Source of the DNA: Porphyromonas sp. COT-239 OH1446
GTDB taxonomy: Bacteria > Bacteroidota > Bacteroidia > Bacteroidales > Porphyromonadaceae
DNA length: 56,015 bases
Direction of reading: 5' to 3'
NCBI RefSeq assembly: GCF_000768875.1
Contig: NZ_JRAO01000007.1
Span: forward strand, 503-56,517
Positions 2 to 55,937 of this stretch are shown here, piece after piece. The translations under genes were made by a program, and so were the position numbers. The notes beneath the pieces are model-generated. The model was given only the letters and a program-made list of their open reading frames with translations. It was not told the DNA's origin and did no database searches. Numbering within the stretch: the stretch's first letter is position 1; every line of letters starts with the position of its first letter.

Positions 2-185
2 GCTCAGATAGGATCTCGAGGGAACTCCTATCTGAGTCTCGATCGAGGTATAAGTAGGAGCTCGGTCGAAGTATAAGTAGGAGCGCAACGGAACCACAAA
101 TAGGCACTCAGGCGAGAGCCTCCCGAGAGCGAGAATGCACTCCCCTCGAGAGCGCAGGCGAAACCATATCTAGGATCTCTATCTA
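2..185. repeat. 23-bp degenerate repeat array I
   Basis: About eight units lie end to end without spacers at 2, 25, 48, 71, 94, 117, 140 and 163, each exactly 23 bp. The two best-matched neighbours both begin GTATAAGTAGGAG. The shared unit pattern is roughly NTCCTAnnTAGGnnCTCGAn followed by CGA. The last three units are much decayed. Positions 3-13 and 26-36 are perfect 11-bp inverted arms around a 12-nt loop. The array is cut by the left edge of the window, so its true start is unknown. The same unit recurs near 14.8, 27.8, 41.5 and 55.8 kb. Confidence 0.85.
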
Positions 186-464
186 CAGTCAAGAGCCAAG
201 CCTATAGGGAAGGGGCAGAAGCGAGCCCTTGATCTGCCATCGCTCCGCAGAGAGGCCCAAAAGGACCTACAGCAAGAGATCAAGGCTCTCCCCCAAGGGG
301 CAGTGATCGCCCAGCCGGCACACAACCCCAGCACCCTACCGAGGGGCAACAAGGGGAGGTATAGCCAGGAGTGCGACACGAAGACGAGAAACACGAGCGA
401 AACAGTCCCAGGCATACGCCCCACAGTCTACGGAGGAACTGAAGACAAAGGAGCGGAGGGAGCC
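186..464. other. gene-free stretch after array I
   Basis: About 280 bp of GC-rich sequence between the repeat array and the promoter of the dCMP deaminase gene. Short open frames exist on both strands, but they overlap each other, are rich in Arg, Ser, Pro and Cys, and look like chance frames. I see no convincing RNA gene. It could be the non-repeat tail of a mobile element that carries the array, but nothing here proves that. Confidence 0.4.
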
Positions 465-496
465 CTTGGGAGTATGCCATCTTATAGCTAATTTTG
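465..496 (+). promoter_or_regulatory. Bacteroidetes-type promoter for the dCMP deaminase operon
   Basis: CTTG at 465-468, a 20-nt spacer, then TAATTTTG at 489-496. This fits the -33 TTG / -7 TAnnTTTG pattern of the Bacteroidetes primary sigma factor. It lies about 40 bp before the first start codon at 537. Confidence 0.6.
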
Positions 497-536
497 CACT
501 GATTTTACAGACACTTATAGCACCCAATAGAGTGAT

Positions 537-968
537 ATGGAGGATGAGAAACAACTGGCACTAGATCTTCGCTATCTGCGTATGGCCGAGATCTGGGCGG
601 AGAACTCGTACTGCATTCGTCGTCAGGTCGGGGCTCTTATTGTCAAGGACAAGAGCATCATATCTGACGGATACAATGGTACGCCCGCAGGCTTCGAGAA
701 TATCTGCGAAGACGAAAACGGGATGACCAAGCAATATGTCCTACACGCAGAGGCCAATGCCATCACCAAGGTTGCCAGCAGCACAAACGACTGCTCAGGG
801 GCAACCCTCTACGTTACCGATAGTCCCTGCCTCGAGTGCGCTAAGCTCATCATCCAGAGCCGCATCTCACGGGTCGTCTACAGCCGAGCCTATCGCCTCA
901 GCGATGGCATTGACCTGCTCAAAAGGGCAGGCATACGGGTAGACTTCGTCCAGCTAAACAAAGAATAA
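537..968 (+). CDS. deoxycytidylate (dCMP) deaminase
   Basis: This 143-aa cytosolic zinc enzyme should convert dCMP to dUMP, supplying substrate for thymidylate synthase. The zinc site is visible: HAEANA (His70, catalytic Glu72) and PCLEC (Cys98, Cys101). The segment YNGTPAGF near residue 46 is typical of the ComEB/dCMP deaminase branch rather than cytidine or tRNA deaminases. Length is normal for the family. It is the first gene of a run with the S41 protease, which starts 3 bp after its stop codon, and has its own promoter upstream. Cytidine-type deaminases share the zinc motif, but the overall pattern favours dCMP. Confidence 0.9.
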   Translation: MEDEKQLALDLRYLRMAEIWAENSYCIRRQVGALIVKDKSIISDGYNGTPAGFENICEDENGMTKQYVLHAEANAITKVASSTNDCSGATLYVTDSPCLECAKLIIQSRISRVVYSRAYRLSDGIDLLKRAGIRVDFVQLNKE

Positions 969-971
969 TAT

Positions 972-2597
972 ATGGAGATCGACAATCAGAAGCCTAGCAC
1001 CAAGAGAAGGGTTTGTAGCACGCTATCGATCATCATGATAGCGATCGTTACCTTCGCCTTGGGCGTGATCTTCTCCTCCCGCATCCTTCCTCGCCCGAGC
1101 AATGCCAGTGTACTGCAGCATGTCATGGGGCTTATCGACCGCTACTATGTAGATACAGTTAGCCTTCGAGAACTTGAGACCAAGGTACTGCCCCAGGTAC
1201 TCAAAGAGCTCGATCCGCACTCAGTATATCTGCCAGCAGAGCTGAACAAGAAAGAGACCGAGGGGCTTGATGGGGGCTTCCAGGGCATAGGGGTACAATT
1301 CATCACCTTCACCGACACTGTAGTCGTTACCCGCATCATAGAGGGAGGGCCTTCGGAGCGGGCTGGACTACAAGCAGGGGACAGACTCCTCAGAGCCGAC
1401 ACAGTCTTACTCTATGGCAAAGCGTTGGATCAGGAGCGCATCTTCAAGGCCCTAAGAGGCCCTGCAGGCTCGGTTGTCTCACTAAGCATCAAGCGTGGCA
1501 CAGACACCCTCGAGCTGCCTGTCGTGCGAGGCGAAGTACCCGTAAGCACCCTCGACGCAGACTACATGATCGACAACAAATGGCTGCTGGTGCGCATCAA
1601 CAAGTGGGGGGCCTATACCCACCAAGAGTTCCTCGCCGCATACGTCCGGCATAGGAATGAGGGGATTAAGGGGATCATCATAGACCTAAGAGACAATGGC
1701 GGGGGATACCTCATGGCCGCCCCTATGCTTGCAGGCGAATTTCTCAGCAAGGATAAGATGATCGTCTACACCGAGGGCCGAGCCTATCCCAGGGAGGAGT
1801 TCACCACAGAGCAGGATGGACTACTCAAGGATATGCCCCTAGTCGTACTGGTCAATGAGCGCAGTGCCAGTGCCAGCGAGATCTTCGCCGGAGCGATGCA
1901 AGACCACGACAGGGCTCTGATCGTAGGGCGTAGAACCTTCGGCAAGGGCTTAGTCCAAGCCCCCTTCCTACTGTCAGACAGCTCGGCAGTACGCCTGACC
2001 ATCGCCCGTTACTACACCCCCTCGGGGCGTAGCATCCAGCGCAGCTATGCCGAGGGTGCAGAGCGGTACGGGGAGGATCTCAGCGAACGTTTCCGCCATG
2101 GGGAGCTCTATAGTGCCGATAGCATCGTGCAGAGCGACTCTACCGTCTTCCTAACCCAGCTTGGGCGTGAGGTCTATGGTGGTGGGGGCATCCGCCCCGA
2201 TGTCTTTGTCCCCCTGGATAGCTCGGGGAGAAACTCCTACTATATGCGCCTCGTACAGTCGGGGACGATGCCCCGCTTCGCCTTCGAGTATGCAGACAGG
2301 AATCGCAAGATGCTCTCGGAGCTGGCTGCGACCAACGAATTGCGCCCCTATCTCAAACAGCTCGGCATGGGTCTACTCTTCGAGTATGCCTATTATGCTC
2401 AACGCGCAGGGGTAGCCATCCGCACCTCGATGCTGCACGAGTCGGCCAAGCTCCTACAAAGTGAGCTACATGCGATGATCGCAGACCATGTATCGCCCAG
2501 CCGCAATGCCTTCTTTGAGATCCTCATGGCCAAAGACCTCGAAATACTCAAAGCAACAGAAATCCTCAACAAAGATGAATGGCGGCCTAAACTCTGA
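972..2597 (+). CDS. C-terminal processing peptidase, S41 family
   Basis: A 541-aa serine protease of the CtpA/Prc type that trims or degrades periplasmic proteins from their C termini. An N-terminal membrane anchor spans about residues 18-36. A PDZ domain follows at about 100-185, with GGFQGIGVQF at its start. The S41 core contains DLRDNGGG (238-245) and the catalytic pair: Ser300 in SASASE and Lys325 in FGKG, the 25-residue separation seen in E. coli Prc. The C-terminal 200 residues hold no domain I recognise. It starts 3 bp after the dCMP deaminase stop, and its end overlaps the next gene by 23 nt, suggesting one transcript. The substrate cannot be told from sequence. Confidence 0.93.
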   Translation: MEIDNQKPSTKRRVCSTLSIIMIAIVTFALGVIFSSRILPRPSNASVLQHVMGLIDRYYVDTVSLRELETKVLPQVLKELDPHSVYLPAELNKKETEGLDGGFQGIGVQFITFTDTVVVTRIIEGGPSERAGLQAGDRLLRADTVLLYGKALDQERIFKALRGPAGSVVSLSIKRGTDTLELPVVRGEVPVSTLDADYMIDNKWLLVRINKWGAYTHQEFLAAYVRHRNEGIKGIIIDLRDNGGGYLMAAPMLAGEFLSKDKMIVYTEGRAYPREEFTTEQDGLLKDMPLVVLVNERSASASEIFAGAMQDHDRALIVGRRTFGKGLVQAPFLLSDSSAVRLTIARYYTPSGRSIQRSYAEGAERYGEDLSERFRHGELYSADSIVQSDSTVFLTQLGREVYGGGGIRPDVFVPLDSSGRNSYYMRLVQSGTMPRFAFEYADRNRKMLSELAATNELRPYLKQLGMGLLFEYAYYAQRAGVAIRTSMLHESAKLLQSELHAMIADHVSPSRNAFFEILMAKDLEILKATEILNKDEWRPKL

Positions 2598-3276
2598 ACC
2601 TACAACCAAAGCAGAGTGGCGCAAGCATACGAGGACTCTCTATGCCCAAAGATTGAGCCCCGAACTTAGGGAGACGGCTTCGCAGACGATCATCTCTGCC
2701 CTAAGGGAAGAGATCGAGCGGAGAGCACCCCAAAGCATAGGGATGTATGCGCCCCTCGGCGACGAACCAGAGATCAGCCCACTGCTCGAGGAGCTTAGGG
2801 AGAGATATCAGCTCTTCCTCCCCCGAGTAGAGAGCGAGACAGAAATAGCATTCTACCCCTACCTAGGGGTTGAGGAGCTCGAGCGCACAAGCAAGTACCA
2901 AATCCTTGAACCAACACAAGGCAAGGAGGAAGCCGTTGCTCCCGAGAGCCTCGAGCTCATTGTCGTACCAGCATTAGCCTTTGACAAGGGAGGCTACCGC
3001 CTCGGGAGAGGGAAGGGCTATTACGACCGATACCTTGCACATACACAGGCCTATCGCATCGGTGTGTCGCTCGACCTTGCCCCCATCGGGAGGCTGCCTC
3101 GAGGAGCATGGGATCTACCCATGGATCTCGTTATCACCCCCGAACGGAGCTATTTAGGGACGAGGTTTCACCCCTCTGCATTCGACATAGAAGATCAAGG
3201 AGATCGCCAAACAAGCATCTATTTGCAAATAAAGAACAAATATTCTCCACAAATCCCTAACTTAGACGAGGATTAA
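2575..3276 (+). CDS. 5-formyltetrahydrofolate cyclo-ligase
   Basis: This enzyme uses ATP to convert 5-formyl-THF to 5,10-methenyl-THF, returning stored folate to the one-carbon pool. The signature GRGKGYYDRYL is at residues 144-154, and the basic N-terminal helix (KAEWRKHTRTLYAQRL) fits. I chose the ATG at 2575, which overlaps the protease gene by 23 nt in another frame; an earlier ATG at 2488 would lie deep inside that gene. At 233 aa it is longer than the usual 180-200 because of a polar C-terminal tail of about 35 residues. Its place just before purH, whose product uses 10-formyl-THF, makes metabolic sense. Confidence 0.88.
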   Translation: MNGGLNSEPTTKAEWRKHTRTLYAQRLSPELRETASQTIISALREEIERRAPQSIGMYAPLGDEPEISPLLEELRERYQLFLPRVESETEIAFYPYLGVEELERTSKYQILEPTQGKEEAVAPESLELIVVPALAFDKGGYRLGRGKGYYDRYLAHTQAYRIGVSLDLAPIGRLPRGAWDLPMDLVITPERSYLGTRFHPSAFDIEDQGDRQTSIYLQIKNKYSPQIPNLDED

Positions 3277-3290
3277 ATAGGGAAAAGGAT

Positions 3291-3298: not shown

Positions 3299-3364
3299 TG
3301 GGAACTGTACTATACAAGCAATCAACTCCCCCTAGAAACGTGGGATCTATCAAACGCCCGAGAG

Positions 3365-13340: not shown

Positions 13341-13632
13341 ACTTCTAACGTTTTAGCATTGTTTGGTTTCGGAGGCTGCACTAGAGCCTAAGGAGCAAGC
13401 CTACCTCCGTCGGAGGGCAGGGACACATCATGCCGAAGTATGCGATCAGGCTAGGACGTCGTAAGAGACAAGCAAAGCTCCATACTACAGCACAGCCTCT
13501 AGCAAAGATAACAAAAAGTGATGAAGAAACATAAATCTATGTATATCAACTCCTCGTATAAACACCAAGAGTGGGGCTATAGTTATATTTATGAGACAAA
13601 TCATCGATATACTTCACTTCAAACAACAATCT
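13341..13632. other. intergenic region between divergent genes
   Basis: About 290 bp between the minus-strand P-loop gene and the plus-strand epimerase-like gene. I see no strict TAnnTTTG box; TATATTTA near 13585 is the nearest match on the + strand. A 42-codon frame at 13521-13649 overlaps the next gene start and is not convincing. Confidence 0.4.
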
Positions 13633-14658
13633 ATGAACAGGCAAAGTAAACAAACCATCCTGCTCACTGGAGCAGCTGGCAACATCGGACGAGAAGTCCT
13701 CAGGATGCTCGTAGCGCAGGGTGATCGCTATCACATCCGAGTGCTCGAGCTCAAAAATGCCCGCAGTATGGCTCTCTTCGATAAATATCGTGGGCGCATC
13801 GAGATCTACTATGCAGATCTCTCTCAACTAGACCAGCTACAGCAGGCTACCCGAGGAGTAGACTGGTGCATCCACACCGCCTCGATCATCCCCCCCAGAG
13901 CCTATGAGGAGAGGGAGCTCACCTATAGGGTCAATGTCCTCGGTACAGCTAACCTGATCGCTTCACTGGAGAAACATTCGCCCAAGGCTTTCATCATCGT
14001 AACCTCCTCGGTCGCAGTCTATGGAGATCGACTACAACGACCCAATATCCGTGTAACCGACCAGTTGCAGACATCGGAGGGCGACAACTACGGCTCATCA
14101 AAGATACATATGGAGCAGATCGTCCGCTCTAGCAAGCTCGGATGGACGATTTTTCGCCTCTCGGCCATCATGGGCGTGGGCAACCACAAGATCTCCAAGC
14201 TCATCTTCCATATGCCTCTAGACACTCAGATGGAGATCACCACACTCGGAGATACAGCCCGAGCCCTCACACTGGCTATAGAGCATCGTTCGGAGCTAGA
14301 GAGGAGGATCTTCAACCTCGGCGGAGGGGCTGCCTGCCGAACGACCTATCGAGAGTTTCTCTCGAAGAACTTCGAGCTCTACGGCCTCGGGGCTCTAGAC
14401 TTCCCCGACAAGGCCTTTGCAGAACGTAATTACCACTGCGGCTTGTATGCCGATGGCGACAAACTTGAGGAAATCCTAGGCTTTAGGCAAGATAGCTTAG
14501 AAGACTACTACGCAACTGTCAAGGCCTCGATCCCAGCCTACAAACGCTGGGGGGCAAGCCTCCTCAAGGGTGAGATCAAGCGAAGGCTACTCAACCGCTC
14601 CGAGCCCTACCGAGCCTGGGTGGAGCAGGACGAGATGCGTATGGAGGACTTCTTCTAG
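13633..14658 (+). CDS. NAD-dependent epimerase/dehydratase family protein
   Basis: A 341-aa Rossmann-fold protein of the extended short-chain dehydrogenase type. The nucleotide loop GAAGNIG is at about residues 13-19. The catalytic-type elements TSSVAVYG and NYGSSKIHME (Tyr-x-x-x-Lys) follow in order, and RLSAIMGVG is the usual downstream substrate-side strand. I chose the ATG at 13633; an in-frame ATG at 13591 would add 14 residues before the conserved ILLTGAAG. Substrate is unknown: members act on nucleotide sugars, sterols or other alcohols. It stands alone, with a terminator-like hairpin 46 bp after the stop. Confidence 0.8.
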   Translation: MNRQSKQTILLTGAAGNIGREVLRMLVAQGDRYHIRVLELKNARSMALFDKYRGRIEIYYADLSQLDQLQQATRGVDWCIHTASIIPPRAYEERELTYRVNVLGTANLIASLEKHSPKAFIIVTSSVAVYGDRLQRPNIRVTDQLQTSEGDNYGSSKIHMEQIVRSSKLGWTIFRLSAIMGVGNHKISKLIFHMPLDTQMEITTLGDTARALTLAIEHRSELERRIFNLGGGAACRTTYREFLSKNFELYGLGALDFPDKAFAERNYHCGLYADGDKLEEILGFRQDSLEDYYATVKASIPAYKRWGASLLKGEIKRRLLNRSEPYRAWVEQDEMRMEDFF

Positions 14659-14774: not shown

Positions 14775-14981
14775 CGTAGCAGAGGGGCTCTACAGAGACC
14801 TAAGTAGGAGCTCGAATGAGCTCCTACTTAGGTCTCTGCTGCGATCCTATTAGGATCTCAAGTGAGAGCCTATCTAGATCTCGAGAGATCCTCCCCCGGG
14901 CATTCGCTAGAGGAAGAACCGAGAGCGCAACCGAAGGGCTATCGAGACCTTGGCTTCAGCGAGAGATCTACCCTCCCTCTA
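14775..14981. repeat. 23-bp degenerate repeat array II
   Basis: Units start at 14775, 14798, 14821, 14844, 14867, 14890, 14913, 14936 and 14959, a strict 23-bp period. Best units begin ACCTAAGTAGGAGCTCGA, CTCCTACTTAGGTCTCTG and AGCCTATCTAGATCTCGA. Divergence rises to the right. It ends about 70 bp before the met operon promoter, so it could influence that promoter. Confidence 0.87.
14793..14838. repeat. perfect 21-bp inverted repeat with GAAT loop, in array II
   Basis: Arms 14793-14813 and 14818-14838 are fully complementary (arm begins CAGAGACCTAAGTAGG). It forms where a unit in one orientation meets a unit in the other. Such an arm length allows a cruciform in DNA or a strong RNA hairpin. 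Confidence 0.85.
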
Positions 14982-15229: not shown

Positions 15230-16504
15230 ATGGCAACATCCTACAAGACACAGCTGCTGCACCATGCCTACGACCGAGCAGCGCATAACGGCTCTACCGC
15301 AGTCCCCCTCTATCAGACGACTGCTTTCGACTTCGGCACGAGTGATCATGCAGCAGATCTCTTCAACTTGGCCGCTCCAGGCTACATTTACACACGCCTC
15401 AACAATCCTACCAGCGATATACTCGAGCAGCGACTGGCCGTCCTAGAAGGGGGGATCGGATCTGTGGTAACCTCCTGCGGCATGAGTGCCATCTCGACGA
15501 CACTGCTGACGCTACTGCGTAGCGGCGACCATATCGTCGCCTCGAGCAGCCTCTATGGGGGGACGTACAACCTACTCTCAGTTACTCTGCCCCGTCTAGG
15601 CATTACGACAAGCTTTGTAGATCCCGACGACTTTGAGGCTTTCGAAGCTGCCATACAGGACAATACACGAGTTGTCTACGCCGAAACATTGGGCAATCCC
15701 AAGCTCGATTTTGTCGACCTTGAGCGTCTCAGCCAGATCGCTCACAGGCATCACCTCCCCTTCGTCGTGGACAATACAACAACCCCTGGAGTCTGCCGCC
15801 CTATCGAGTATGGGGCAGACCTAGTCATCCACTCGCTCTCAAAATATGTCTGTGGCAATGGTTCAACGCTGGCAGGGGCAGTAGTCGATGCAGGGCACTT
15901 CGACTGGGCCTCGGGCAAGTTTCCCGAGTTCACCACCCCCAGCCCTGGTTATCATGGTCTGATCTATAGTGAAGCCTTTGGCCCTGCGGCCTTCATCGCC
16001 AAGCTGCGTGTGGAGGGGTTGCGAGATCTAGGTGGTGCACTGAGCCCATTCAATTCTCTCCAGCTCATTCAGGGTCTCGAGACCCTCGACATTCGCTACG
16101 AACGGGTCAGTCGATCAGCTCTCGAGATCGCCCGCTGGCTCGAGGGGCATCCACAAGTCGAGTGGGTCAATTACCCTGGTCTTGAGAGTAGTGCCTACCA
16201 TGATCGCTGCCAGCAATATATCCGTGGGGGCTTCGGGGGGCTGCTGACCTTCGGGACTAAGGGCGGCTACGAGACAGCCAAGAAATTCTCCGACAGCACC
16301 AAGATCTTCTCCATCGTGGCCAACCTAGGCGATAGCAAGAGCCTCTTGATACACCCTGCCAGTACGACCCATCGCCAACTATCGGCAGAGCAGCAACTCT
16401 CGGCAGGTGTTACTCCATCGCTCGTACGCCTCTCCATCGGGCTCGAAGAGGTGGAGGATCTCAAGGCAGATCTTGACCAAGCCCTCAGACAGAGTGCATC
16501 ATAA
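15230..16504 (+). CDS. metY: O-acetylhomoserine sulfhydrylase
   Basis: A 424-aa PLP enzyme of the Cys/Met metabolism family that forms homocysteine from O-acetylhomoserine and sulfide. The Schiff-base lysine is Lys205 in HSLSKYVCGNG. TSCGMSAIST (81-90) binds the cofactor phosphate, and YIYTRLNNPT is the usual N-terminal block. The insertion after the lysine (GYHGLIYSEAFG, near 242) and the length above 400 residues favour MetY over cystathionine gamma-synthase or beta-lyase, which are shorter. It leads an operon with metX (stop 17 bp before the metX ATG) and hom, consistent with direct sulfhydrylation. Confidence 0.9.
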   Translation: MATSYKTQLLHHAYDRAAHNGSTAVPLYQTTAFDFGTSDHAADLFNLAAPGYIYTRLNNPTSDILEQRLAVLEGGIGSVVTSCGMSAISTTLLTLLRSGDHIVASSSLYGGTYNLLSVTLPRLGITTSFVDPDDFEAFEAAIQDNTRVVYAETLGNPKLDFVDLERLSQIAHRHHLPFVVDNTTTPGVCRPIEYGADLVIHSLSKYVCGNGSTLAGAVVDAGHFDWASGKFPEFTTPSPGYHGLIYSEAFGPAAFIAKLRVEGLRDLGGALSPFNSLQLIQGLETLDIRYERVSRSALEIARWLEGHPQVEWVNYPGLESSAYHDRCQQYIRGGFGGLLTFGTKGGYETAKKFSDSTKIFSIVANLGDSKSLLIHPASTTHRQLSAEQQLSAGVTPSLVRLSIGLEEVEDLKADLDQALRQSAS

Positions 16505-26371: not shown

Positions 26372-27565
26372 TTAGTCCTCAGCACAGGCCTCAAGCATCT
26401 CGAGGCACAGCTCACGGCCCTTGAGCATCATGCGGGGGATGTGAAAAGGGCCTTTGAATATATTCCCCTTGGCAGGCTGAGCTACCGAGCCATCACGATG
26501 TAGATAGCCATACCACTCGCCGCACTCGGCGTCGGGGAAGTGGGCATAAGTCCAATCGCTGATACGCTGGTGCATATCGAGATACTTCGTATCGCCACTG
26601 AGCTGGTAGGCATAGAGGGTAGCGATGATCGCCTCGGTTTGAGGCCACCAAAACTTCATATCCTGTGAGTAGTCCTGTGCGGGGAAGCCCTTGCAATCAC
26701 GGAAGTTGATGATGCCACCGAACTCATCATCCCAACCCCACTGCCAAGACCAGTCGAGGATCGTCAGAGCCATCTCGAGCAGTTCCTCATCACCGCCACG
26801 ATGCTTGACCTCGTCCATGAGGAACCAAGCCGTCTCGATGCAGTGCCCAGGGTTGATCAGGCGGCCATTGATCGTATCGACGAATTCGCCATGCTCACCC
26901 ACGCTCTCGAGCAGGGCGCAGAACTCTGGCTTCATGAAGTAGGTCTTGAGCTCATGGATGCTGTCGCTGATCTGCTTATCCAGCTCGGGAGCTTGGATAG
27001 CACGTCTGAGGCGAGCAGCCACGTTGAGTAGGATCATCACGATAGAGTGCGAGCGTCCCTTGACATGTGGCTCGTACTTGGCTGGTAATGCGCCAGGCGT
27101 GGCAAGCCAGTCCTGCACCTTGAGGAAGAGATCAAGGGCCTTCTCGGCATAGCTCTTGTCGCCCGAGGCGATGCTATACTCCGCCATGGCAATGATGGCG
27201 AAGGTCTCGCTGAAGACGTAGCGACGCAGGCGCAGTGGCGTACCATCGGCCATAACCTCAAAGTACATGCGCCCATCGGGGTTGAAGCAGTGCTGCTCGA
27301 TAAAGTCAATACAGAGCTTGCTGGCCTCAAGCCATTCGGCACGGGGGGCTACAGTGTTGTAAGCGTTGGCGAAGATATAGCCTGCACGCCCCTGAAACCA
27401 TACGCTCTTGGTCGAGTCCATCAGTTCGCCATTGCGATCGAGGCAGGTGTAGATGCCGCCATGCCTGTGGTCTAGTCCATAGGTGAGCCAAAAGGGGAGG
27501 ATGTCCTGTACTAGATCCTCTTCGTAGCGATCCGCCCAATAGCGAAGGTAATTCTGAACGTTCAT
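26372..27565 (-). CDS. N-acylglucosamine 2-epimerase family protein
   Basis: A 397-aa (alpha/alpha)6-barrel protein of the AGE/RenBP family, which interconverts N-acetylglucosamine and N-acetylmannosamine. Recognisable blocks are WLTYGLDHRHGGIYTCLDRNG (residues about 27-47), SVWFQGRAGYIFA, GRMYFEVMADG, the NPGHCIETAWFLMDE region (about 238) and KFWWPQTEAIIATLYAY, with His and Arg residues of the active site. In Bacteroides, an AGE enzyme serves as the NanE step of sialic-acid breakdown. It heads a run with the kelch protein (7-bp gap) and YhcH. Cellobiose 2-epimerase shares the fold and is an alternative. Confidence 0.82.
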   Translation of the reverse strand: MNVQNYLRYWADRYEEDLVQDILPFWLTYGLDHRHGGIYTCLDRNGELMDSTKSVWFQGRAGYIFANAYNTVAPRAEWLEASKLCIDFIEQHCFNPDGRMYFEVMADGTPLRLRRYVFSETFAIIAMAEYSIASGDKSYAEKALDLFLKVQDWLATPGALPAKYEPHVKGRSHSIVMILLNVAARLRRAIQAPELDKQISDSIHELKTYFMKPEFCALLESVGEHGEFVDTINGRLINPGHCIETAWFLMDEVKHRGGDEELLEMALTILDWSWQWGWDDEFGGIINFRDCKGFPAQDYSQDMKFWWPQTEAIIATLYAYQLSGDTKYLDMHQRISDWTYAHFPDAECGEWYGYLHRDGSVAQPAKGNIFKGPFHIPRMMLKGRELCLEMLEACAED

Positions 27566-27756: not shown

Positions 27757-27964
27757 ATCCTACTTCCTACCCCGAAACGATCCTATTAGGATCGCAGATG
27801 AGGCTCAGATAGGAGCTCGATCGAGCTCCTATCTGAGCCTCGAGCGAAGTCCTACTTGAGCCTCTGCCGAGAGCTAGCCGAGAGCTCGGACGAGGGTATA
27901 GATGATCCTTGAGGCGAGGGCCTACTGAGAGCTCGATAGAGCCACTTGGCCCACTATCAGCACA
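27757..27964. repeat. 23-bp degenerate repeat array III
   Basis: Units start at 27757, 27780, 27803, 27826, 27849, 27872, 27895 (24 bp), 27919 and 27942. Best-conserved units begin ATCCTATTAGGATCGCAG, GCTCAGATAGGAGCTCGA and CTCCTATCTGAGCCTCGA. It lies between the amino-sugar operon and the decarboxylase-like gene. Together with the terminator and promoter regions it fills the 520-bp gap 27566-28087. Confidence 0.87.
27800..27841. repeat. perfect 42-bp palindrome in array III
   Basis: Two 21-bp halves (27800-27820 and 27821-27841; left half begins GAGGCTCAGATAGGAGC) are exact reverse complements with no spacer. As in array II, it arises where two repeat units of opposite orientation meet. Confidence 0.88.
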
Positions 27965-28087: not shown

Positions 28088-29953
28088 CTAGTGGCGGTGG
28101 CGACGCTGCGTTACGGCATGGCGTACCTCCTCGAGCTTCTCAACCCTCTTGAGGCGTTCGGGTTCGCTCTCGCTCCACTGCTCCTCCACCTCGGCTGGGC
28201 GCACATAGGCCAGAGGCTCACCCTTGCGCACAGTAGCACCCTGAGCGAGCACCTCGGTCAGACGACCCGTGAAGTTGGAGATCACTGGCTCGATATAGCC
28301 AGCCACGGTTTGGATGTAGCACAGAGGCTCACCCGTCTTGATGGCTGTGCCGATCGCAGGGGCGGTAGAGTAGTCGGTCGGATCAACCTCCCAGATGAGG
28401 CTACCCGTCGCTGCGGCCACGATAGGCTCCGTGCCCTGACGCTTGATCTTGAGTGCATCGGCCTCGTTATAGCCCTGCTTGACGAGCGACTCGGTACGGG
28501 CCTTGTCGAGATCCTCCTGGAAGCGTTGCTTGGCTACGCCGCTCTTGTAGTCTCGATACTGGCGGTCGTGCATGGCCAGCTCGAAGAGCTCTTCGTCGTC
28601 CTCACCGTACTCCCAGCCGTTCTCGTCCATCTCCTTGCGGTATTCGTCGAGGGCATCGGGATAGTTGCCCTGTGGGTCTTCGTCGGTGAACTCAAGTCCC
28701 TTCTCTTTGGCCAGTGCAATGATCTCAGGATCGAGAGCTCCAGGCAGGCGGCCCGACTTGCCCAGGATCATACCCCAGGTATTGTTGTCGATAGCCTGCC
28801 AGCGTCCCTTGCCCGTTACCATGTTGTAGACGTTCATGAGGGCTACGTTCTTGACGTACTGGCTGAAGGGCGTTACCAAAGGAGGATAGCCCAGGCGTGG
28901 CCATACATATTCTACTTCGTTGAAGAGCTTGACCAGCAGATCATCCACGCTCAGTTCGGCCTCGCCCTTGCTGCGCAGATACATATTGATCCCTGCGTGT
29001 ACCCCCTTCAGGTCGGCCATCATCGAGCCCATCATACCACCAGGCAGACCGCAGCCTACGAGCAGCGAGGTCATCAGCTTGTTGCTCTCGGTCATGAAGT
29101 AGCCGAGGAAGTCATCGATGAACTCCTGGGTCAGCGAGCGGGCACGCATGTAAGCATCCATGTTGATCTCAGGCACCTTGAAGCCTGCATCGTGGAGCAT
29201 CTCACGGATGGTAATCACGTCTGGATGGATCTTACCCCAAGAGATAGGCTCCATGGCCACGTCGATGATGTCTGCACCATTCTTACATACCTCGAGCATC
29301 GAAGCCACAGAGAAGCCTGGGCCTGAGTGGCCATGATACTCAATGATCACCTCGGGGTGCTTGTCCTTGATAGCCTTGACGAGGCGACCGAGGAAGACAG
29401 GGCGACCCACACCAGCCATATCCTTGAGGCAGATCTCAGGAGCACCGGCGGCGATGAACTGATCGGCTAGAGTAGCGTAGTACTCTACCGTATGTACAGG
29501 AGAGTGGGTGATACACAGCGTTGCCTGGGGGATCATGCCTGCCTCGAGGGCATACTTGATCGAGGGGATCACGTTGCGAGCATCATTGAGCCCGTCGAAA
29601 ATGCGGGTGATGTCTACCCCCTGAGCCTTCTTCACCTTGTACATCAAACGGCGAACGTCTGCAGGCACTGGGTACATGCGCAGACCATTGAGTCCACGGT
29701 CTAGCATGTGGGTCTGAATGCCCGCTTCGTTGAGTGGCTTGGTGAAGGCACGTACAGCCTTATTGGGGTTCTCCCCATAGAGAAGGTTTACCTGCTCGAA
29801 GGCACCACCATTAGTCTCTACGCGTGCGAAGCAGCCCATCTCTACGATCACGGGAGCGATGCGCTCGAGTTGATCTTTGCGTGGTTGATACTTACCGGAG
29901 GACTGCCACATGTCTCGGTAAATCAAGCTAAACTTAATCTCTTTTTGTTGCAT
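28088..29953 (-). CDS. oxaloacetate decarboxylase alpha / pyruvate carboxylase B-like protein without biotin lysine
   Basis: A 621-aa protein with a DRE-TIM/HMGL-type carboxyltransferase domain (about 1-290; RDMWQSSGKY, ETNGGAFEQ, CLKDMAGVGRP, EYHGHSGPGF with metal-ligand His residues) and a conserved PYC_OADA domain (about 300-480). The C-terminal 90 residues look like a biotinyl domain (GEPLCYIQTVAGYIEP, GRLTEVLAQGATVRKGEPLAYV), but where EAMKM should stand the sequence is QTVAGY, with no lysine. So it keeps the carboxyltransferase but cannot be biotinylated at the usual place. It might work with a separate biotin carrier. It follows rsmE by 19 bp. Confidence 0.8.
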   Translation of the reverse strand: MQQKEIKFSLIYRDMWQSSGKYQPRKDQLERIAPVIVEMGCFARVETNGGAFEQVNLLYGENPNKAVRAFTKPLNEAGIQTHMLDRGLNGLRMYPVPADVRRLMYKVKKAQGVDITRIFDGLNDARNVIPSIKYALEAGMIPQATLCITHSPVHTVEYYATLADQFIAAGAPEICLKDMAGVGRPVFLGRLVKAIKDKHPEVIIEYHGHSGPGFSVASMLEVCKNGADIIDVAMEPISWGKIHPDVITIREMLHDAGFKVPEINMDAYMRARSLTQEFIDDFLGYFMTESNKLMTSLLVGCGLPGGMMGSMMADLKGVHAGINMYLRSKGEAELSVDDLLVKLFNEVEYVWPRLGYPPLVTPFSQYVKNVALMNVYNMVTGKGRWQAIDNNTWGMILGKSGRLPGALDPEIIALAKEKGLEFTDEDPQGNYPDALDEYRKEMDENGWEYGEDDEELFELAMHDRQYRDYKSGVAKQRFQEDLDKARTESLVKQGYNEADALKIKRQGTEPIVAAATGSLIWEVDPTDYSTAPAIGTAIKTGEPLCYIQTVAGYIEPVISNFTGRLTEVLAQGATVRKGEPLAYVRPAEVEEQWSESEPERLKRVEKLEEVRHAVTQRRHRH

Positions 29954-36273: not shown

Positions 36274-36351
36274 TGGTCGGGATACCAGGATTCGAACCTG
36301 GGACCCCCTGCTCCCAAAGCAGGTGCGCTAACCGGACTGCGCTACATCCCG
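36274..36351 (-). tRNA. tRNA-Pro (TGG anticodon)
   Basis: Read on the minus strand: acceptor CGGGATG pairs with TATCCCG, D arm GCGC..GCGC, anticodon stem CCTGC/GCAGG with loop TTTGGGA, T arm CCAGG-TTCGAAT-CCTGG, discriminator A, and CCA encoded at 36276-36274. The anticodon TGG reads CCA/CCG codons. Its own promoter lies just upstream. Confidence 0.97.
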
Positions 36352-36506: not shown

Positions 36507-36581
36507 TCGGGATGACTGGATTCGAACCAGCGACCACACGCCCCCCAGACGTGTACTCTAACCGGGCTGAGCTACATCCCG
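36507..36581 (-). tRNA. tRNA-Pro (GGG anticodon)
   Basis: Acceptor CGGGATG/CATCCCG, D arm GCTC..GAGT, anticodon stem CACGT/GCGTG with loop CTGGGGG, T arm GCTGG-TTCGAAT-CCAGT, discriminator A. The next bases are CAC, so CCA is not encoded and must be added after transcription, unlike the neighbouring tRNA-Pro. Anticodon GGG reads CCC/CCU. Confidence 0.95.
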
Positions 36582-40561: not shown

Positions 40562-41299
40562 CTAATCCACCTCAAAGCTCGAGCGTACGGTTACGCTTGC
40601 AGTCTTGAGCTTGGAGGAGGTATTGAACGTCCCACCCCAGCTGTATTCGTCCTCGCTGTTGAGCCCAACGATCTGGAAGACACCCATCGACGAGGAGGTC
40701 ATGCGACCGATGCTCCCCTTACTCCCTCGGGCGATGATAGAGGCTCGATTGTAGGCATCCTCGGAGGCCTCCTGCAACATCTCCATCTTGAGGGTATTGA
40801 GCTGGGTATAGTAGTAGCGAGGAGCACGGGCCACAAGACCGATCCCCTCATGAAGCAATTCGGAGATACTCTGATAGATCTGCTCGACCTCGTCCACACG
40901 GCTCGAGGTGATGATAATATCGCTCATGAGCTCGAAGCCCTTATACTCTCGGATATACTTCTGCATCTGATTGCTGTAGTACTGATCGTACTTCTCCTCT
41001 ACGGAGGTTGAGGAGAAGCTGATCTGCTCCTGCTCGATACCACGCTCCTTGAGATAGGCTAGGATGCGCTCCTTGTAACGCTTGTGCTCGGCATAGGCCT
41101 GCCGCTGGTCTTTGTTCACGGCTACGGCCTTGATCGTCCAAACGATCTGATCGCTCTTGATCTGACGAGAGGCCATCCCAGTAACAGTAATCTTGGGGTC
41201 TCCTCCACTAAAGTGCTTAATGCCCCCAGCCAGCAGCCAAGCACTGACGATAACGGCCACGGCGATGATGGTGGCGATGATTAGCTTACCCTTTTGCAT
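40562..41299 (-). CDS. SIMPLE (DUF541) family membrane-anchored protein
   Basis: A 245-aa protein with an N-terminal hydrophobic anchor or signal (residues about 7-26) and a periplasmic body. ITVTGMASRQIKSDQIVWTI near residue 38 is the SIMPLE/DUF541 opening; the middle (SFSSTSVEEKYDQ, FELMSDIIITSSRVDEVEQIYQSI) and the C-terminal VTVRSSFEV fit. Family members are periplasmic or outer-membrane associated with no agreed function. I use the ATG at 41299; the longer frame to 41389 crosses the promoter-like box. It stands alone. Confidence 0.82.
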   Translation of the reverse strand: MQKGKLIIATIIAVAVIVSAWLLAGGIKHFSGGDPKITVTGMASRQIKSDQIVWTIKAVAVNKDQRQAYAEHKRYKERILAYLKERGIEQEQISFSSTSVEEKYDQYYSNQMQKYIREYKGFELMSDIIITSSRVDEVEQIYQSISELLHEGIGLVARAPRYYYTQLNTLKMEMLQEASEDAYNRASIIARGSKGSIGRMTSSSMGVFQIVGLNSEDEYSWGGTFNTSSKLKTASVTVRSSFEVD

Positions 41300-41376
41300 A
41301 AGTATTTGATTGTTAGATAATGATACATGTATGATCCTCCCGAGGGCCTCATGCAGGGCGATGGGAGCGACAGGCA

Positions 41377-41384
41377 CAAATGTA
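41377..41384 (-). promoter_or_regulatory. -7 box (TACATTTG) of the SIMPLE-family gene
   Basis: TACATTTG on the minus strand, about 78 bp before the start. No clear -33 TTTG. Confidence 0.4.
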
Positions 41385-41466
41385 GACATTTCTTTACACT
41401 CACCATCATTGTAGAAGAAAAAAACTCTACCGCCACGCTGGGGGCTGAGCGGGGAGGGGAGGCGAA

Positions 41467-41651
41467 GGCCTATCGAGAGCCTTGCCCTAGCTCTATTACC
41501 CTCTCTATAGAGACATAAGTAGGAGCTCGAATGAGCTCCTATCTGAGTCTCAGGAGAGATCCTATCTAGACCTCCAGTGCGGCTCTATCGAGTCCTCGCC
41601 TCATCCCCTAGACGAGAGCTCAGCTGAGCTCCTACCTGAGCCTCTATCAAG
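41467..41651. repeat. 23-bp degenerate repeat array IV
   Basis: Units start at 41467, 41490, 41513, 41536, 41559, 41582, 41605 (24 bp) and 41629. Good units begin ACATAAGTAGGAGCTCGA, CTCCTATCTGAGTCTCAG and CTCCTACCTGAGCCTCTA. The junction of the third and fourth units holds 9-bp inverted arms around GAAT (41520-41541), the same loop as in array II. The rest of the 41300-41814 gap shows no gene. Confidence 0.87.
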
Positions 41652-42279: not shown

Positions 42280-43176
42280 TTAGTTGCCGTAGGGGACTAC
42301 GAGTTTCATACCCTTACCTCTCAGCGTTACGAGCTTCTTGTCGGTGAGAACTTCCTCAACAAGAAGTGAATAGTTTCCCGTCGTATAATCACTAACATTG
42401 ACGAAAGTAATTTTGGTCTCGATACGCTTGCCTTTCTCTGGGTTCAGTATCGCTGGGATAAACACACGCTGCTGATCCAGCTGTAGGCTAGGAGAGCTGG
42501 AGATCCAAGCCATCTTGCCCGCACGATAGGCATACAAAAGGGCTGGGAAGTGCTCTCTGAGCTCCTTATGGCTAGTGTTATAGAAGCCCACTTTGTGCGA
42601 CACATTGTTATCTGCCTTGACTCTGATCAAGAGCTCCTTAGCAGGACGATTGTCTTGCGTCTTAAATATCAGCTTGGCCTCCCCCTCGTGTGTGGCTCGG
42701 AGTTTGAGCGAACCAGTCTTAGCCTCCCACTCGAAGATAATAGCCTCCTCGGGGTCTTCCTCTTCGACGACAACATCATCACCTCCACCAATCACACGAA
42801 TATCCTGACGCTCCTGACCTGGATAGAGTGTCAAGCTCGCCTCAGGCAGGTTTAGTTCCGACCGTTGTACCTTAACTGTAAGGGTCTTCTGCTTATTATG
42901 CGATCGAATCAGCACAATGGTCTCGCCATACTCGAGCCCTTTAAGTTTAAGGTAAGAGCCCTCGATACGAGCCTCTAGAATGCGAGAGTCTCGGACAGAA
43001 ACTGAAAACTTACCATTCCCTCCCGATAGGGCTACGTCTTGATTCGTCTCCTTATCAAGAATGATCTCTGTAAGCTTGCCCCCGATCTCGATCTCAGGGA
43101 TCTTAGGTTCGTCCGCCTTCTTACAAGATGAGACTATCAGCACAATGAGTGCAATGTATAGGGATATACGCTTCAT
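42280..43176 (-). CDS. lipoprotein with Ig-like (BIG2-type) repeats
   Basis: A 298-aa lipoprotein: signal MKRISLYIALIVLIVSSC with lipid Cys at residue 18, followed by KKADEP. Residues about 30-100 and 105-190 look like two bacterial Ig-like domains (VALSGGNGKFSVSVRDS, LKGLEYGETIVLIRS, then LTLYPGQERQDIRVIGGGDD). The C-terminal third is not recognised. It is the last gene of the uptake locus, 60 bp after the FN3 protein, with a strong terminator behind. Probably a surface or outer-membrane accessory protein; ligand unknown. Confidence 0.6.
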   Translation of the reverse strand: MKRISLYIALIVLIVSSCKKADEPKIPEIEIGGKLTEIILDKETNQDVALSGGNGKFSVSVRDSRILEARIEGSYLKLKGLEYGETIVLIRSHNKQKTLTVKVQRSELNLPEASLTLYPGQERQDIRVIGGGDDVVVEEEDPEEAIIFEWEAKTGSLKLRATHEGEAKLIFKTQDNRPAKELLIRVKADNNVSHKVGFYNTSHKELREHFPALLYAYRAGKMAWISSSPSLQLDQQRVFIPAILNPEKGKRIETKITFVNVSDYTTGNYSLLVEEVLTDKKLVTLRGKGMKLVVPYGN

Positions 43177-49804: not shown

Positions 49805-49821
49805 CTTTGTCTCGAATAGGT

Positions 49822-53190: not shown

Positions 53191-53207
53191 ATCGAGCAAT
53201 GGGTCTT

Positions 53208-55499
53208 CTATAGCTTAGCACTCATACCTAGATAGAAGCCTCTAGGATGCCCAGGCCTGAGGCCCGATGGATGGCGAGAGGTGAGGTAGGTCTTGTTGGT
53301 AATATTAATCGCATTGACCGACAGGCTAATCTTGCGGCTTAGGTGTATGCGTGCCGAGGCGTCCCAAACAGTGTGGTTGGGGATGAGCTCACGCTCGGCA
53401 ATGCTCCCCTGCCCTGGCTTGGTACGCATATCGCTGTTGTAGCGCATACTTAGGTGGAGATCTGCCCATCGATGCTCGAGGCCGATCTGCGCATTGAGGG
53501 TATGCTGAGCGATATAGGGGATCTCGTCCCCAATATCCACCTTACCCCATGAATTGCTTACGAAGGCATTGCGCATCTCCGTATCAGTATAGGTATAGGA
53601 GAGCTGTAGAGGAAGGCCAATGCGCCAACTCTCGGGCAGTGGCTGGTAGCGAGCTAAGAACTCTGCTCCGTGCACAATGGCCCGACCGATGTTGAACTGC
53701 TCAAGCGTCCCCAACCCACCTGCAGCAGCCAGGTCGCTACCGAGCATATTACTGTAGTTGTTGTAGAAGCCAATGAGCTCGACATGTAGATTGCCTCTAG
53801 TGAAGCGGCCTCCGAGCTCCATGTTGATACTCTCCTCGGGCTTCTGCTGCTGGAAGCCCCCCTCGGGGATGAGGCTACGATGGGGAACTATCCGAGGGAT
53901 GTCCGTGATGCCTGGAGGGGCAAAGCCCTTGTGCGCACCGAAGAAGACCGAAGCTCCACGAAAGAGCTTGACACTGATCCCAGCACTAGGGATCAGCACT
54001 CGAGCGGCATTGGTCAGCTCATGGCGACGCATCCCCGTACGGCGCGGATCTTCACGCCCCATATCGTTGCGAAGGAGGCGAATATCCTCGTAGCGCAGCC
54101 CAGTAGTAAGCGTAATATTACCCCAGGCGAGCTTGGCCAGTAGGTGGCTCGCCAGGGCATTGGCCGAGGTAATACGATTGGCCTGAGCTCCGTGGATACC
54201 GGCGAGGTAGAGAGTCATCACACCACCCTTCATCGAGTAGGCATCATCCCACTGGTAGCGATCCTCTAGGTCTTGGTGATAGCGCAGCCCCGCCTCTAGA
54301 TTCATATAGACGCCCCCTAGACGTAGCTTGTGCTCAGCCTTAGCCTGTAGTCCAGAAGAATAGTAAGATCGGTTGTTCGCCCGCATGATGAGCCCATCCT
54401 CCAGGTAATCTCTCTGCCCTGTGAGGATCTCATAGTAGACAGAGTTGATCTCTGGCTCGGAGAGTACCTGCTCGAGCGATCTCTTCTCGCCCTTGGTATG
54501 GCCAGCACGCACGTCGTTAAGTTTGTACCAATTACGATGGAAGTAGTTATGATAGGCATTGGCCGTGATCTTGGTATTGAAGCCCAAAGAGAGGAGGTAG
54601 GTCGCCACGAGCTGTACATGCTTCGTTTTGATATTATCTTTCTGAGAACCGAGATAGCGGACGAAGGGTTTGAGGGCAAAATCCGCCTCTGTCAAGCCCA
54701 CATAAGTCTCGTCTGAATCTTCGTTCGCATAGCCAAACTTAAGTTCGAGGGCGTGGTTTGTATCCTCGCTCTGATCGGTATTCACCCTCAGCTTGGCAAT
54801 GAGGTCATTGCGCTCCAGGCCAGCCTTCTGCCCATCGGAGAGGCGTTTGAAACCATCACTCTGCATCCTAAGATACTCAACCATATAGCCCCAGTGGCGA
54901 AAGCTATCCCCGAGCTGTGCATGCGCCTTGAATGTACCATAGCTCCCGTAGCTCGTGTTGAGCTTGCCCGCAAAGCGATGAGGAATAGCAGCCGAGACCA
55001 TATTAATCGCTCCCCCAGTGGTGAAGGGGCCATACTGTACCTGGCTACTCCCCTTGAGCACCTCAACGGCCTGCATACGGGCTGCGTTGGGGAAGTAGTA
55101 TGCCGCAGGAGAAGAGTAGGGGGCTGGAGCTGCGAGGATGCCATCCTCCATGATCGTGATACGCTCACTACGCTCGGCCTTAGTACCACGCAGGGAGATA
55201 TTGGGGCGCAAGCCGAAGCCATCCTCTTCGTAGAGGTTCACCCCAGGGACGGCCTTGAGCATGCGGTTGATGTCTGTGTACCCTAACTTTTGGATCTCTA
55301 GAGGGGATATATAGTAGGCCGAGCCCGTACGGTTCTGTGCCTGAAACTTGCTCCCGAGGATCTGTCGAGATTGTACGACGAGCTCCTGCAGGACGCGTGT
55401 CGAATCTGCGATCTCCTGCTCCTTGGGGTATTTGTTAGTCTGAGCGGAAAGAGAGCAGATGCCTGCAGAGCAGAGTAAAATGATTAATATTCGTTGCAT
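53208..55499 (-). CDS. TonB-dependent receptor (FecA-like)
   Basis: A 763-aa outer-membrane receptor with signal MQRILIILLCSAGICSLSAQ. The TonB box is LQELVVQSRQ (about 37-46). The plug has DINRMLKAVPGVNLYEEDGFGLRPNISLRG and VEVLKGSSQVQYGPFTTGGAINMVS (each in parts), similar to FecA-type ferric-citrate receptors. The barrel ends GFYLGMSAKL. There is no SusC-type regulatory domain, so it is a classical receptor. It heads the nine-gene locus behind a TAACTTTG box. Likely cargo is an iron or other metal complex, by family resemblance only. Confidence 0.9.
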   Translation of the reverse strand: MQRILIILLCSAGICSLSAQTNKYPKEQEIADSTRVLQELVVQSRQILGSKFQAQNRTGSAYYISPLEIQKLGYTDINRMLKAVPGVNLYEEDGFGLRPNISLRGTKAERSERITIMEDGILAAPAPYSSPAAYYFPNAARMQAVEVLKGSSQVQYGPFTTGGAINMVSAAIPHRFAGKLNTSYGSYGTFKAHAQLGDSFRHWGYMVEYLRMQSDGFKRLSDGQKAGLERNDLIAKLRVNTDQSEDTNHALELKFGYANEDSDETYVGLTEADFALKPFVRYLGSQKDNIKTKHVQLVATYLLSLGFNTKITANAYHNYFHRNWYKLNDVRAGHTKGEKRSLEQVLSEPEINSVYYEILTGQRDYLEDGLIMRANNRSYYSSGLQAKAEHKLRLGGVYMNLEAGLRYHQDLEDRYQWDDAYSMKGGVMTLYLAGIHGAQANRITSANALASHLLAKLAWGNITLTTGLRYEDIRLLRNDMGREDPRRTGMRRHELTNAARVLIPSAGISVKLFRGASVFFGAHKGFAPPGITDIPRIVPHRSLIPEGGFQQQKPEESINMELGGRFTRGNLHVELIGFYNNYSNMLGSDLAAAGGLGTLEQFNIGRAIVHGAEFLARYQPLPESWRIGLPLQLSYTYTDTEMRNAFVSNSWGKVDIGDEIPYIAQHTLNAQIGLEHRWADLHLSMRYNSDMRTKPGQGSIAERELIPNHTVWDASARIHLSRKISLSVNAINITNKTYLTSRHPSGLRPGHPRGFYLGMSAKL

Positions 55500-55552
55500 A
55501 TAGATGATTTGGCTACGAGGGCTATCCCCTCGAGGGAAGCATAAATCGGGTG

Positions 55553-55560
55553 CAAAGTTA
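55553..55560 (-). promoter_or_regulatory. -7 box (TAACTTTG) of the nine-gene uptake locus
   Basis: TAACTTTG on the minus strand, about 54 bp before the receptor ATG. No good TTTG at the -33 position, which could mean that an activator is needed. Confidence 0.5.
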
Positions 55561-55799
55561 CCCCAAGCCCGAGGCTCCGGGTATCCCCATTATTAGGTAT
55601 TTGGAATAACCCCCATCAACAATCATACCGCAATGTAGGTAGCACCAGGAGGGTCGATGGGAGGAATGGGGAGAAACTTCCATGATAAAATTTCTCAAGC
55701 GATGGATTGGCCTGGCTTGCTGGACCTCCTGCCCTAGGCTCTGCGGTAGGCATTCGCCTTGGAAAGGCTTCTCCCACACTCGATCAGGGGGCGATCAAG
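55561..55799. other. gene-free stretch before array V
   Basis: About 240 bp upstream of the uptake-locus promoter. Short frames on the minus strand look accidental. I see no clear hairpin, Fur-like palindrome or RNA gene. It may hold binding sites for regulation of the locus. Confidence 0.35.
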
Positions 55800-55937
55800 G
55801 CCACGATAGCCCCTCTAAAGAATGCTCGGCAGGACCTCGAGTGAGGCCCTAGATAGGCCTTTGATGGAGGTCTCAGGAGGCATGCAGCACAGGCCTCAGT
55901 AGGATCGCAACAGAGATCTAAGTAGACGTGAGTTCGG
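55800..55937. repeat. 23-bp degenerate repeat array V
   Basis: Units start at 55800 (weak), 55823, 55846, 55869, 55892 and 55915, again in 23-bp phase; best units begin TGCTCGGCAGGACCTCGA, GGCCTCAGTAGGATCGCA and GATCTAAGTAGACGTGAG. It is the most decayed of the five arrays. The last 78 bp of the window show no gene. Confidence 0.78.

What the first reader, a model, noticed from the sequence alone, without database searches (positions are those of the whole stretch)
2..55937. Five intergenic arrays of a degenerate 23-bp repeat kept in strict phase
Arrays at 2-185, 14775-14981, 27757-27964, 41467-41651 and 55800-55937 share a unit close to NTCCTAnnTAGGnnCTCGAn plus CGA. Units differ a lot in sequence, yet the 23-bp step is kept almost without slips (only two 24-bp units seen). 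All lie between genes. I recall a P. gingivalis MITE called BrickBuilt that carries a tandem 23-nt minisatellite; these arrays have the same unit length and intergenic placement, but I cannot tell whether the unit sequence matches or whether leader, tail and terminal repeats are present here. If not the same, this is a new repeat family; if related, it shows the element outside the described species in strongly diverged form.
Basis: partly seen in the sequence, partly recalled or inferred. Interest (0 to 1): 0.8.

Follow-up and report, generated by a model that had tools for sequence, protein, structure and literature searches.

The report
Evenly spaced palindromic repeat arrays
This bacterium and many of its relatives carry a short stack of roughly 22-letter mirror-image DNA repeats about every 10,000 letters along the chromosome; the letters of the repeat change from species to species while its length and even placing stay, which points to an unknown protein that organises the chromosome.

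Summary
The window has five intergenic arrays of a degenerate 23-bp unit; the 330,914-bp contig C2 has 30 more. The unit is a 19-bp imperfect inverted repeat plus a 4-nt spacer (about 21 bits). Units within an array are no more alike than units of different arrays (0.58, 0.57). C2 arrays are spaced more evenly than chance: mean 11.1 kb, CV 0.47, P<0.001.

The unit was found in none of 37 relatives, yet an unbiased period scan shows a family-wide class. Of 148 significant intergenic hits in 21 genomes, 141 have period 21-24 bp (two are 7-nt simple repeats, one a longer repeat). Units, mostly palindromic, differ between species or sister groups. In one relative, spacing is 9.6 ± 1.4 kb. In 80 other named loci, 4 hits had such a period.

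It is not BrickBuilt: that unit occurs in 2 of 38 genomes, not this one. BrickBuilt may be one species' version of the class.

Most likely the arrays are chromosome-wide binding platforms for a dimeric DNA-binding protein, one dimer every two helical turns, with an architectural role. The protein is unidentified; ParB, HU-HIG and HTH_17 counts do not track array density. Rivals: a self-spreading element with target immunity; mere minisatellites.

The parts
1..179 (.). array 1, units in both orientations (reaches the window start, may continue beyond)
   Evidence: cyclic HMM; lag-23 0.43; decoded + 2-23, - 24-44, + 45-117
14784..14948 (.). array 2; holds a perfect 21-bp inverted unit pair with a 4-nt loop; between genes 13591-14658 (+) and 15230-16504 (+)
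27779..27944 (.). array 3; holds a perfect 19-bp inverted unit pair with a 4-nt loop; between genes 26372-27565 (-) and 28088-29953 (-)
41503..41650 (.). array 4; between genes 40562-41389 (-) and 42280-43176 (-)
55813..55926 (.). array 5; beside gene 53208-55499 (-), other neighbour outside the window

Best explanation
The arrays are chromosome-wide binding platforms for a sequence-specific, dimeric DNA-binding protein. Each 21-23-bp unit carries one dyad (16-19 bp) and a short spacer of fixed length and freer sequence. Several dimers therefore sit about two helical turns apart, on one face of the DNA. Platforms stand about every 10 kb in non-coding DNA, in this genome preferentially between divergent genes. 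The even spacing argues for an architectural job such as anchoring or insulating supercoiling domains, or loading a chromosome-organising machine, rather than regulation of particular genes. Recognition sequence and protein change together between species, and individual sites come and go. Shown here: arrays, dyads, constant period, even spacing in most stretches tested, species- or sister-group-specific units, site turnover, no strong tie to particular genes. Inferred: the protein, binding, cooperativity, co-change of protein and site, domain role.
For: Period conserved while sequence is not: 141 of 148 hits at 21-24 bp in 21 genomes; resampled segments give 3 hits, none at 21-24; dropping two 7-nt simple repeats leaves 139, one of them really a longer repeat. 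Units differ by species or sister group. Dyad symmetry at P<=0.05 in 112 of 141 hits, 112 of 139 after the drop. Conservation is uneven along the unit (0.03 to 1.84 bits), with a low-information spacer of fixed length, clearest in G026, as for a protein site. Within-array identity 0.582, between arrays 0.575. Even spacing: C2 CV 0.47, P 0 to 0.00085 by null; C7 CV 0.50, P 0.00055 against uniform placing; G026 CV 0.14, not reached in 50,000 draws per segment set; 6 of 8 stretches at P<0.05. Divergent gaps hold 14 of 27 arrays against 7 of 34 array-free gaps, P 0.015. Orthologues of array neighbours are neighbours in 32 of 169 comparisons, base rate 303 of 2032.
Against: No binding protein was identified. 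ParB_N gives one match in 35 of 38 genomes whatever the array density; none in G019 and G034; four in array-rich G025, two of them below cut-off. HU-HIG and HTH_17 counts do not correlate with density, rho -0.09 and -0.05 over 20 genomes. The closest relatives by PurH, G014 and G018, nearly lack arrays (1 in 235 kb), so the system is dispensable. Several genomes hold more than one unit family, and this genome has a second one at least once (C2:101365). Some array pairs look like copies: 92% over 140 bp here, 85-90% over about 300 bp in G025, there with leader and tail. Evenness fails in G011 (P 0.74) and is marginal in G012 (0.09). The scan, which adds the second-family array, gives a smallest C2 gap of 3.0 kb instead of 5.1. 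The divergent preference is weaker in relatives: 33 of 107, no null run.
Confidence: 0.5

Rival explanations
1. The arrays are a self-spreading (MITE-like) element made of transposase-binding units of about 22 bp. Even spacing results from target immunity, as described for Tn7, Mu and Tn3 (recalled), not from a host function.
For: 22-bp binding repeats and target immunity occur together in Tn7-like elements (recalled). Copy-like array pairs and a leader-array-tail element in G025. A 351-bp segment holding an array in G025 is cleanly absent in G001. Fast turnover between G026 and G031: 1 of 4 comparable sites shared at median 95.5% protein identity.
Against: No 9-mer is common to the flanks of the 35 arrays here (best 6 of 70 flanks). 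No clear target-site duplication at the one empty site. No array-private consensus, and conservation is confined to certain positions of the unit. None of the 10 window proteins scanned, most of them array neighbours, is a transposase; not tested elsewhere.
Confidence: 0.22
2. Ordinary minisatellites: tandem repeats grown by slippage or quasi-palindrome correction, with no function.
For: Tandem arrays; some identical units in tandem at 46-bp steps; a few perfect inverted unit pairs. BrickBuilt has been described as a minisatellite (PMC4596501, passages and part 1 of section 7 read).
Against: Slippage makes neighbours alike, but here neighbours are as unlike as strangers (0.580 against 0.575). 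It explains neither one dominant genome-wide consensus, nor the same 21-24-bp period with differing sequences in 18 of 20 relatives, nor even spacing.
Confidence: 0.12
3. Operator arrays of ordinary transcription regulators (or several of them), controlling the flanking genes.
For: Palindromes, intergenic position, preference for divergent gaps; more array-adjacent genes face the array with their 5' side than their 3' side, 177 against 126.
Against: Neighbour genes are hardly conserved between species (32 of 169 against base 0.149; sister pair G001/G025 included). One array per 10 kb or so, evenly placed, would be an odd regulon. Codirectional and convergent gaps also hold arrays (13 of 27).
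Confidence: 0.09
4. Transcribed hairpin arrays (terminators or mRNA 3'-end stabilisers).
For: Folding z-scores of -2.3 to -8.0 in four folds of three arrays.
Against: Strong hairpins (inverted-repeat score 15 or more) in 5 of 35 arrays and in 4 of 43 array-free gaps. 14 of 27 arrays sit between divergent genes and only 3 between convergent ones. No Rfam family reached its threshold there.
Confidence: 0.04

Closest known systems
BrickBuilt (Porphyromonas gingivalis MITE with 23-nt minisatellite; PMC4596501, passages and part 1 of section 7 read)
   Same: Unit length 23, intergenic placing, imperfect units; weak similarity of unit consensus
   Different: Unit absent here (0 hits). [quoted passage not shown] here about one array per 11 kb, and no leader, tail or terminal repeats found
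REP/BIME elements of enterobacteria (recalled)
   Same: Palindromic, intergenic, hundreds of copies, possible link to supercoiling
   Different: REP units are longer, not in strict 22-bp phase, not renewed in sequence at constant period between species, and not known to me to be evenly spaced
Iteron and plasmid-centromere arrays (recalled)
   Same: Short arrays of repeats near 22 bp or palindromic sites in helical phase, bound cooperatively
   Different: One locus per replicon; here one every 10 kb or so along the chromosome
Chromosomal site systems parS/ParB, NBS/Noc, matS/MatP (recalled)
   Same: Palindromic sites spread over the chromosome and bound by a dimeric organiser
   Different: Single sites, conserved sequence. 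A parS core is present separately (30 of 38 genomes) and ParB_N copy number does not track arrays
BldC-type cooperative binding to direct repeats (PMC5859096, passages read)
   Same: Shows how repeats in register can be bound as a filament that distorts DNA
   Different: Shorter, non-palindromic repeats at promoters. HTH_17 (Pfam), taken here by recall as the nearest family, has no match in array-bearing G001, G011 and G026

Membership tests
BrickBuilt MITE | 23-nt unit AGAYCATARTATCCTCTCRTRTG | tested here: not met
   0 hits at up to 3 mismatches in this genome; 218 in G006 and 29 in G008
BrickBuilt MITE | terminal inverted repeats GAGACCTTTGCA-like | tested here: not met
   three variants, within 400 bp of 35 arrays: 0 hits at up to 1 mismatch, 2-4 at 2 mismatches against 3.2-6.1 expected
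BrickBuilt MITE | shared leader and tail around the array | tested here: not met
   no 9-mer in more than 6 of 70 flanks; the two best array-to-array matches stop within about 22 bp of the array ends
BrickBuilt MITE | target-site duplications | tested here: inconclusive
   no second strain of this species was found or fetched; one empty site in relatives G001/G025 shows no clear duplication; the paper itself finds inconsistent ones
simple minisatellite | neighbouring units more alike than distant ones | tested here: not met
   adjacent 0.580, within 0.582, between 0.575
ParB/parS or Noc/NBS | parS-like palindrome as array unit, or an extra ParB paralogue in array-rich genomes | tested here: not met
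   unit is not parS; parS core separately present in 30 of 38; one ParB_N match in 35 of 38, four in G025 only
architectural binding array | binding by a dimeric protein and effect on chromosome structure | not testable with these tools
   sequence evidence only

The most novel reading that the evidence does not exclude
A new class of bacterial chromosome-organising system in Porphyromonadaceae: a 'molecular ruler' of short arrays of helically phased dyads about every 10 kb, read by a fast-evolving dimeric protein, with the recognition sequence replaced across the whole chromosome from species to species while period and spacing stay, a bacterial parallel to rapidly evolving satellite/centromere systems. 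BrickBuilt would be one species' form of it.
Probability: 0.4. Interest if true: 0.95.

Novelty: categorically new. Interest (0 to 1): 0.85.

Why it matters
If true, it gives sequence-defined markers for chromosome domains of about 10 kb in bacteria, a size proposed for supercoiling domains (recalled) whose boundaries are usually thought to be sequence-independent. It also offers a case of a genome-wide binding code renewed in step with its reader. It makes the question 'are bacterial micro-domains fixed by sequence?' directly testable, by contact maps and supercoiling maps at predicted sites. Even if the arrays prove to be a selfish element with target immunity, a ruler-like distribution with a spacing CV of 0.14 (G026) would be remarkable.

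Tried and rejected
BrickBuilt membership: rejected. ParB paralogue as reader: not supported by copy number, and a parS core exists separately. HU-HIG and HTH_17 as reader: counts uncorrelated with array density; other DNA-binding families were not tried. RNA hairpin function: strong hairpins only in a minority. Array neighbours as a regulon: neighbour genes hardly conserved (40 orthologue groups in at least 3 genomes). Known RNA family: no match at the arrays (only two tRNAs in the window). Exact two-unit pattern over genome contigs: 0 hits; the tool warns that the own or near genomes may be left out. Synteny around purH-ftsW in 10 relatives: arrays lie near the ends of the conserved gene block in G001, G002 and G016 but not at fixed places; G014 and G018 have none there, nor has G012. 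Other periods: the five 14-bp hits in the 80 named loci look like 7-nt simple repeats.

Limits: gene calls are a greedy longest-ORF set, not curated. Evenness was tested on contig C2, on C7 from printed hit listings only (one pattern's 2-mismatch hits were truncated there; uniform null), and on stretches of 7 relatives. C2 contexts use 27 of 30 arrays (those in ORF-free segments). The scan finds 28 of the 30 HMM arrays on C2 plus one of another family. Density of relatives rests on 20-160 kb each. On re-check, of 141 hits two (G001 49737, G025 101586) are 7-nt simple repeats and one (G016 second stretch, 37213) has no signal at lag 22 itself, so is a longer repeat; densities used were not recomputed. 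Similarity clusters used the first 12 of this genome's 34 scanned arrays. In the G026 evenness figure one of 11 arrays was added by motif search after the scan missed it. Of the four G026/G031 sites, two have matching genes on one side only. Paper searches were made; none listed a title or abstract describing such family-wide arrays, but only open-licence papers are searched.
Full report
WHAT WAS CHECKED. The five arrays are real. In each stretch, identity at lag 23 is 0.39-0.46 against a mean of 0.25-0.26, and the 40 highest lag-23 values of sliding windows fall only there. A cyclic hidden Markov model, trained from a loose seed on the window plus contig C2, returns five arrays in the window and 30 in C2. 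A strand-aware version ends, from all eight starts (four seeds, two switch rates), on essentially the same unit of about 21 bits: TCTAARTAGGANCTCnATnGAGR. Read from its GAG, this is an imperfect inverted repeat GAGRTCYARRTAGGANCTC (19 bp) followed by a 4-nt spacer. Arrays are 114-233 bp long, median 173 bp or 7.5 units. Orientation of units may switch inside an array.

HOW MANY, AND HOW PLACED. A two-mismatch pattern of the first consensus has 218 hits in the 1.96-Mb genome and 6 for the reversed control. A longer pattern has 323 hits and 0 control hits. On C2, spacing is 11.1 kb on average, CV 0.47, never under 5.1 kb. Random choices among intergenic segments give mean CV 0.72-0.91 in five versions of the null. 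P is 0 to 0.00085, and the minimum gap was not reached in 20,000 draws of any version. The independent scan finds 28 of these 30 plus one array of another family near 101.4 kb; with it the smallest gap is 3.0 kb, CV 0.51, P 0.0008. On contig C7, 20 array positions taken from hit listings give mean 11.9 kb, CV 0.50, P 0.00055 against uniform placing. Of 30 C2 arrays, 27 lie in ORF-free segments: 14 between divergent genes, 10 codirectional, 3 convergent. Against array-free segments of 150 bp or more the divergent excess has P 0.015. In the window itself the three arrays with both neighbours known lie between codirectional genes.

UNITS BEHAVE LIKE BINDING SITES. Among 191 full units, identity is 0.582 within arrays, 0.580 between neighbours and 0.575 between arrays, so there is no array-private sequence as slippage or recent copying would leave. 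Conservation varies along the unit from 0.03 to 1.84 bits. There is some copying: the best pair of arrays is 92% identical over 140 bp, another is 82% over 217 bp.

FAMILY-WIDE CLASS. None of 37 other genomes of the family has this unit at up to 2 mismatches. Yet a scan that allows any period from 13 to 40 finds, in 2.59 Mb of 21 genomes (729 intergenic segments), 148 hits with z>5, of which 141 have period 21-24. Resampled segments give 3 hits, none at 21-24. A later check shows that two of the 141 are 7-nt simple repeats and one has no signal at its own lag and so is a longer repeat; the conclusion stands. 18 of 20 relatives have at least one such array after this check; G017 and G018 have none in 58 and 95 kb. 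Units differ by species or sister group: CTAATACCGGTATTAG plus 6 nt in G026, ACGAGTTACCATAACTCGT plus 4 nt in G002, GATATC-centred in G016, GACCWATATAGGTC-like in G011, CCACGTGG-centred in G025 and G001. The G026 unit has 369 hits in G026, 270 in its sister G031 and 0-2 in nine other genomes of its genus. Several genomes hold more than one family, and a few families are shared more widely, for example between G011 and G013 or G005 and G006. Folded profiles are reverse-complement symmetric at P<=0.05 in 112 of 141 hits (112 of 139). In 80 named loci, nearly all titled Bacteroidota (1.48 Mb), the same scan gives 12 hits, 4 of them at 21-22 bp: one in Candidatus Bacteroides intestinavium, one in Parabacteroides, two in a Dysgonomonadaceae MAG, one of which is really a 42-bp repeat. 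One of these loci, titled Porphyromonadaceae (L129), had none.

EVENNESS IN RELATIVES. Six of the eight stretches with at least seven arrays, counting C2, are more even than chance at P<0.05, and still six of eight after the two simple repeats are dropped. G012 is marginal (0.09) and G011 is not even (0.74). G026 stands out: 11 arrays in 120 kb at 9.64 ± 1.38 kb, CV 0.14, not reached in 50,000 draws for any of three segment sets. One of the 11 was found by motif, not by the scan.

TURNOVER. Array density ranges from 0 to 1.45 per 10 kb. The closest relatives by PurH, G018 and G014 (78% identity), have 0 and 1 arrays in 95 and 140 kb. Between G026 and G031 (median protein identity 95.5%) one of four comparable sites keeps an array, with altered units; two of the four have matching genes on one side only. 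Between G001 and G025 three array sites are shared (a fourth pair proved to be a simple repeat), and one G025 array lies in a 351-bp segment cleanly absent from G001 without a clear duplication. In G025 the five best array pairs are 85-91% alike over 292-364 bp, and six of seven aligned copies share a leader and tail, so in that lineage the array travels, or has travelled, in a MITE-like element. Genes beside arrays are hardly conserved as neighbours: 32 of 169 orthologue comparisons against a base rate of 303 in 2032.

BRICKBUILT. The published consensus (PMC4596501; passages and part 1 of section 7 read) occurs in G006 (218 hits) and G008 (29 hits) and in none of the other 36 genomes, this one included. 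G006 is a single contig of 2,354,886 bp, which I recall as the size of P. gingivalis ATCC 33277. Terminal repeats are not enriched near the arrays here. The consensus scores better on this unit's profile than 97.6% of its own shuffles, a hint of kinship only.

MECHANISM. A constant period near two helical turns with differing palindromic sequences is best explained by dimers of a DNA-binding protein lined up on one face of the DNA. Even placing, with no strong tie to particular genes, points to chromosome architecture. The reader protein is not known: ParB_N gives one match in 35 of 38 genomes (none in two, four in G025), a parS core is present separately in 30 of 38, and HU-HIG and HTH_17 counts do not follow array density. 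The main rival is a self-spreading element whose target immunity spaces the copies. A mixture is possible: arrays seeded by copying and then kept by selection for binding.

NOVELTY. None of the paper searches listed a description of such a family-wide, evenly spaced class. The library holds open-licence papers only. P. gingivalis W83 was reported to have 41-, 23- and 22-nt tandem repeats (stated in PMC4596501), so single members have been seen before. What is new is the class: constant period, changing sequence, ruler-like placing.

Noticed in passing
window 14784-14948 and 27779-27944; L038 (contig C2 140404-140576): Perfect 19-21-bp inverted unit pairs with 4-nt loops inside some arrays, although units are on average only about 58% alike; perhaps quasi-palindrome correction.
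   Followed up: partly
L036 (contig C2 101365-101524): This genome has at least one array of a second family: 22-bp units close to AAGAAAATTTATTTTCTTGCGG, resembling by eye minor units of G011 such as GTGCGCACGAAAATT.
   Followed up: partly
G025 loci L065, L107-L111: Arrays sit in a dispersed element of about 300-430 bp with conserved leader and tail, comparable in layout to BrickBuilt but with other units.
   Followed up: partly
contig C2 263349-294112 (L044, L045): The largest array-free gap on C2 (31 kb) ends 2.5 kb before an exact parS core at C2:296645 and holds an HU-HIG gene at 277934.
   Followed up: no
L136 8315 and 7072: A Dysgonomonadaceae MAG has a 21-bp array of about nine TTGCGCGCC units, and nearby a 42-bp repeat.
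   Followed up: no
L053, L077-L081, L223-L224 (G006): The genome carrying most BrickBuilt units also has other 22-bp arrays, for example TTTCCACnnGTGGAAA-like units resembling one of G005.
   Followed up: no
window 36277-36351 and 36507-36581, minus strand: Two tRNA genes.
   Followed up: no
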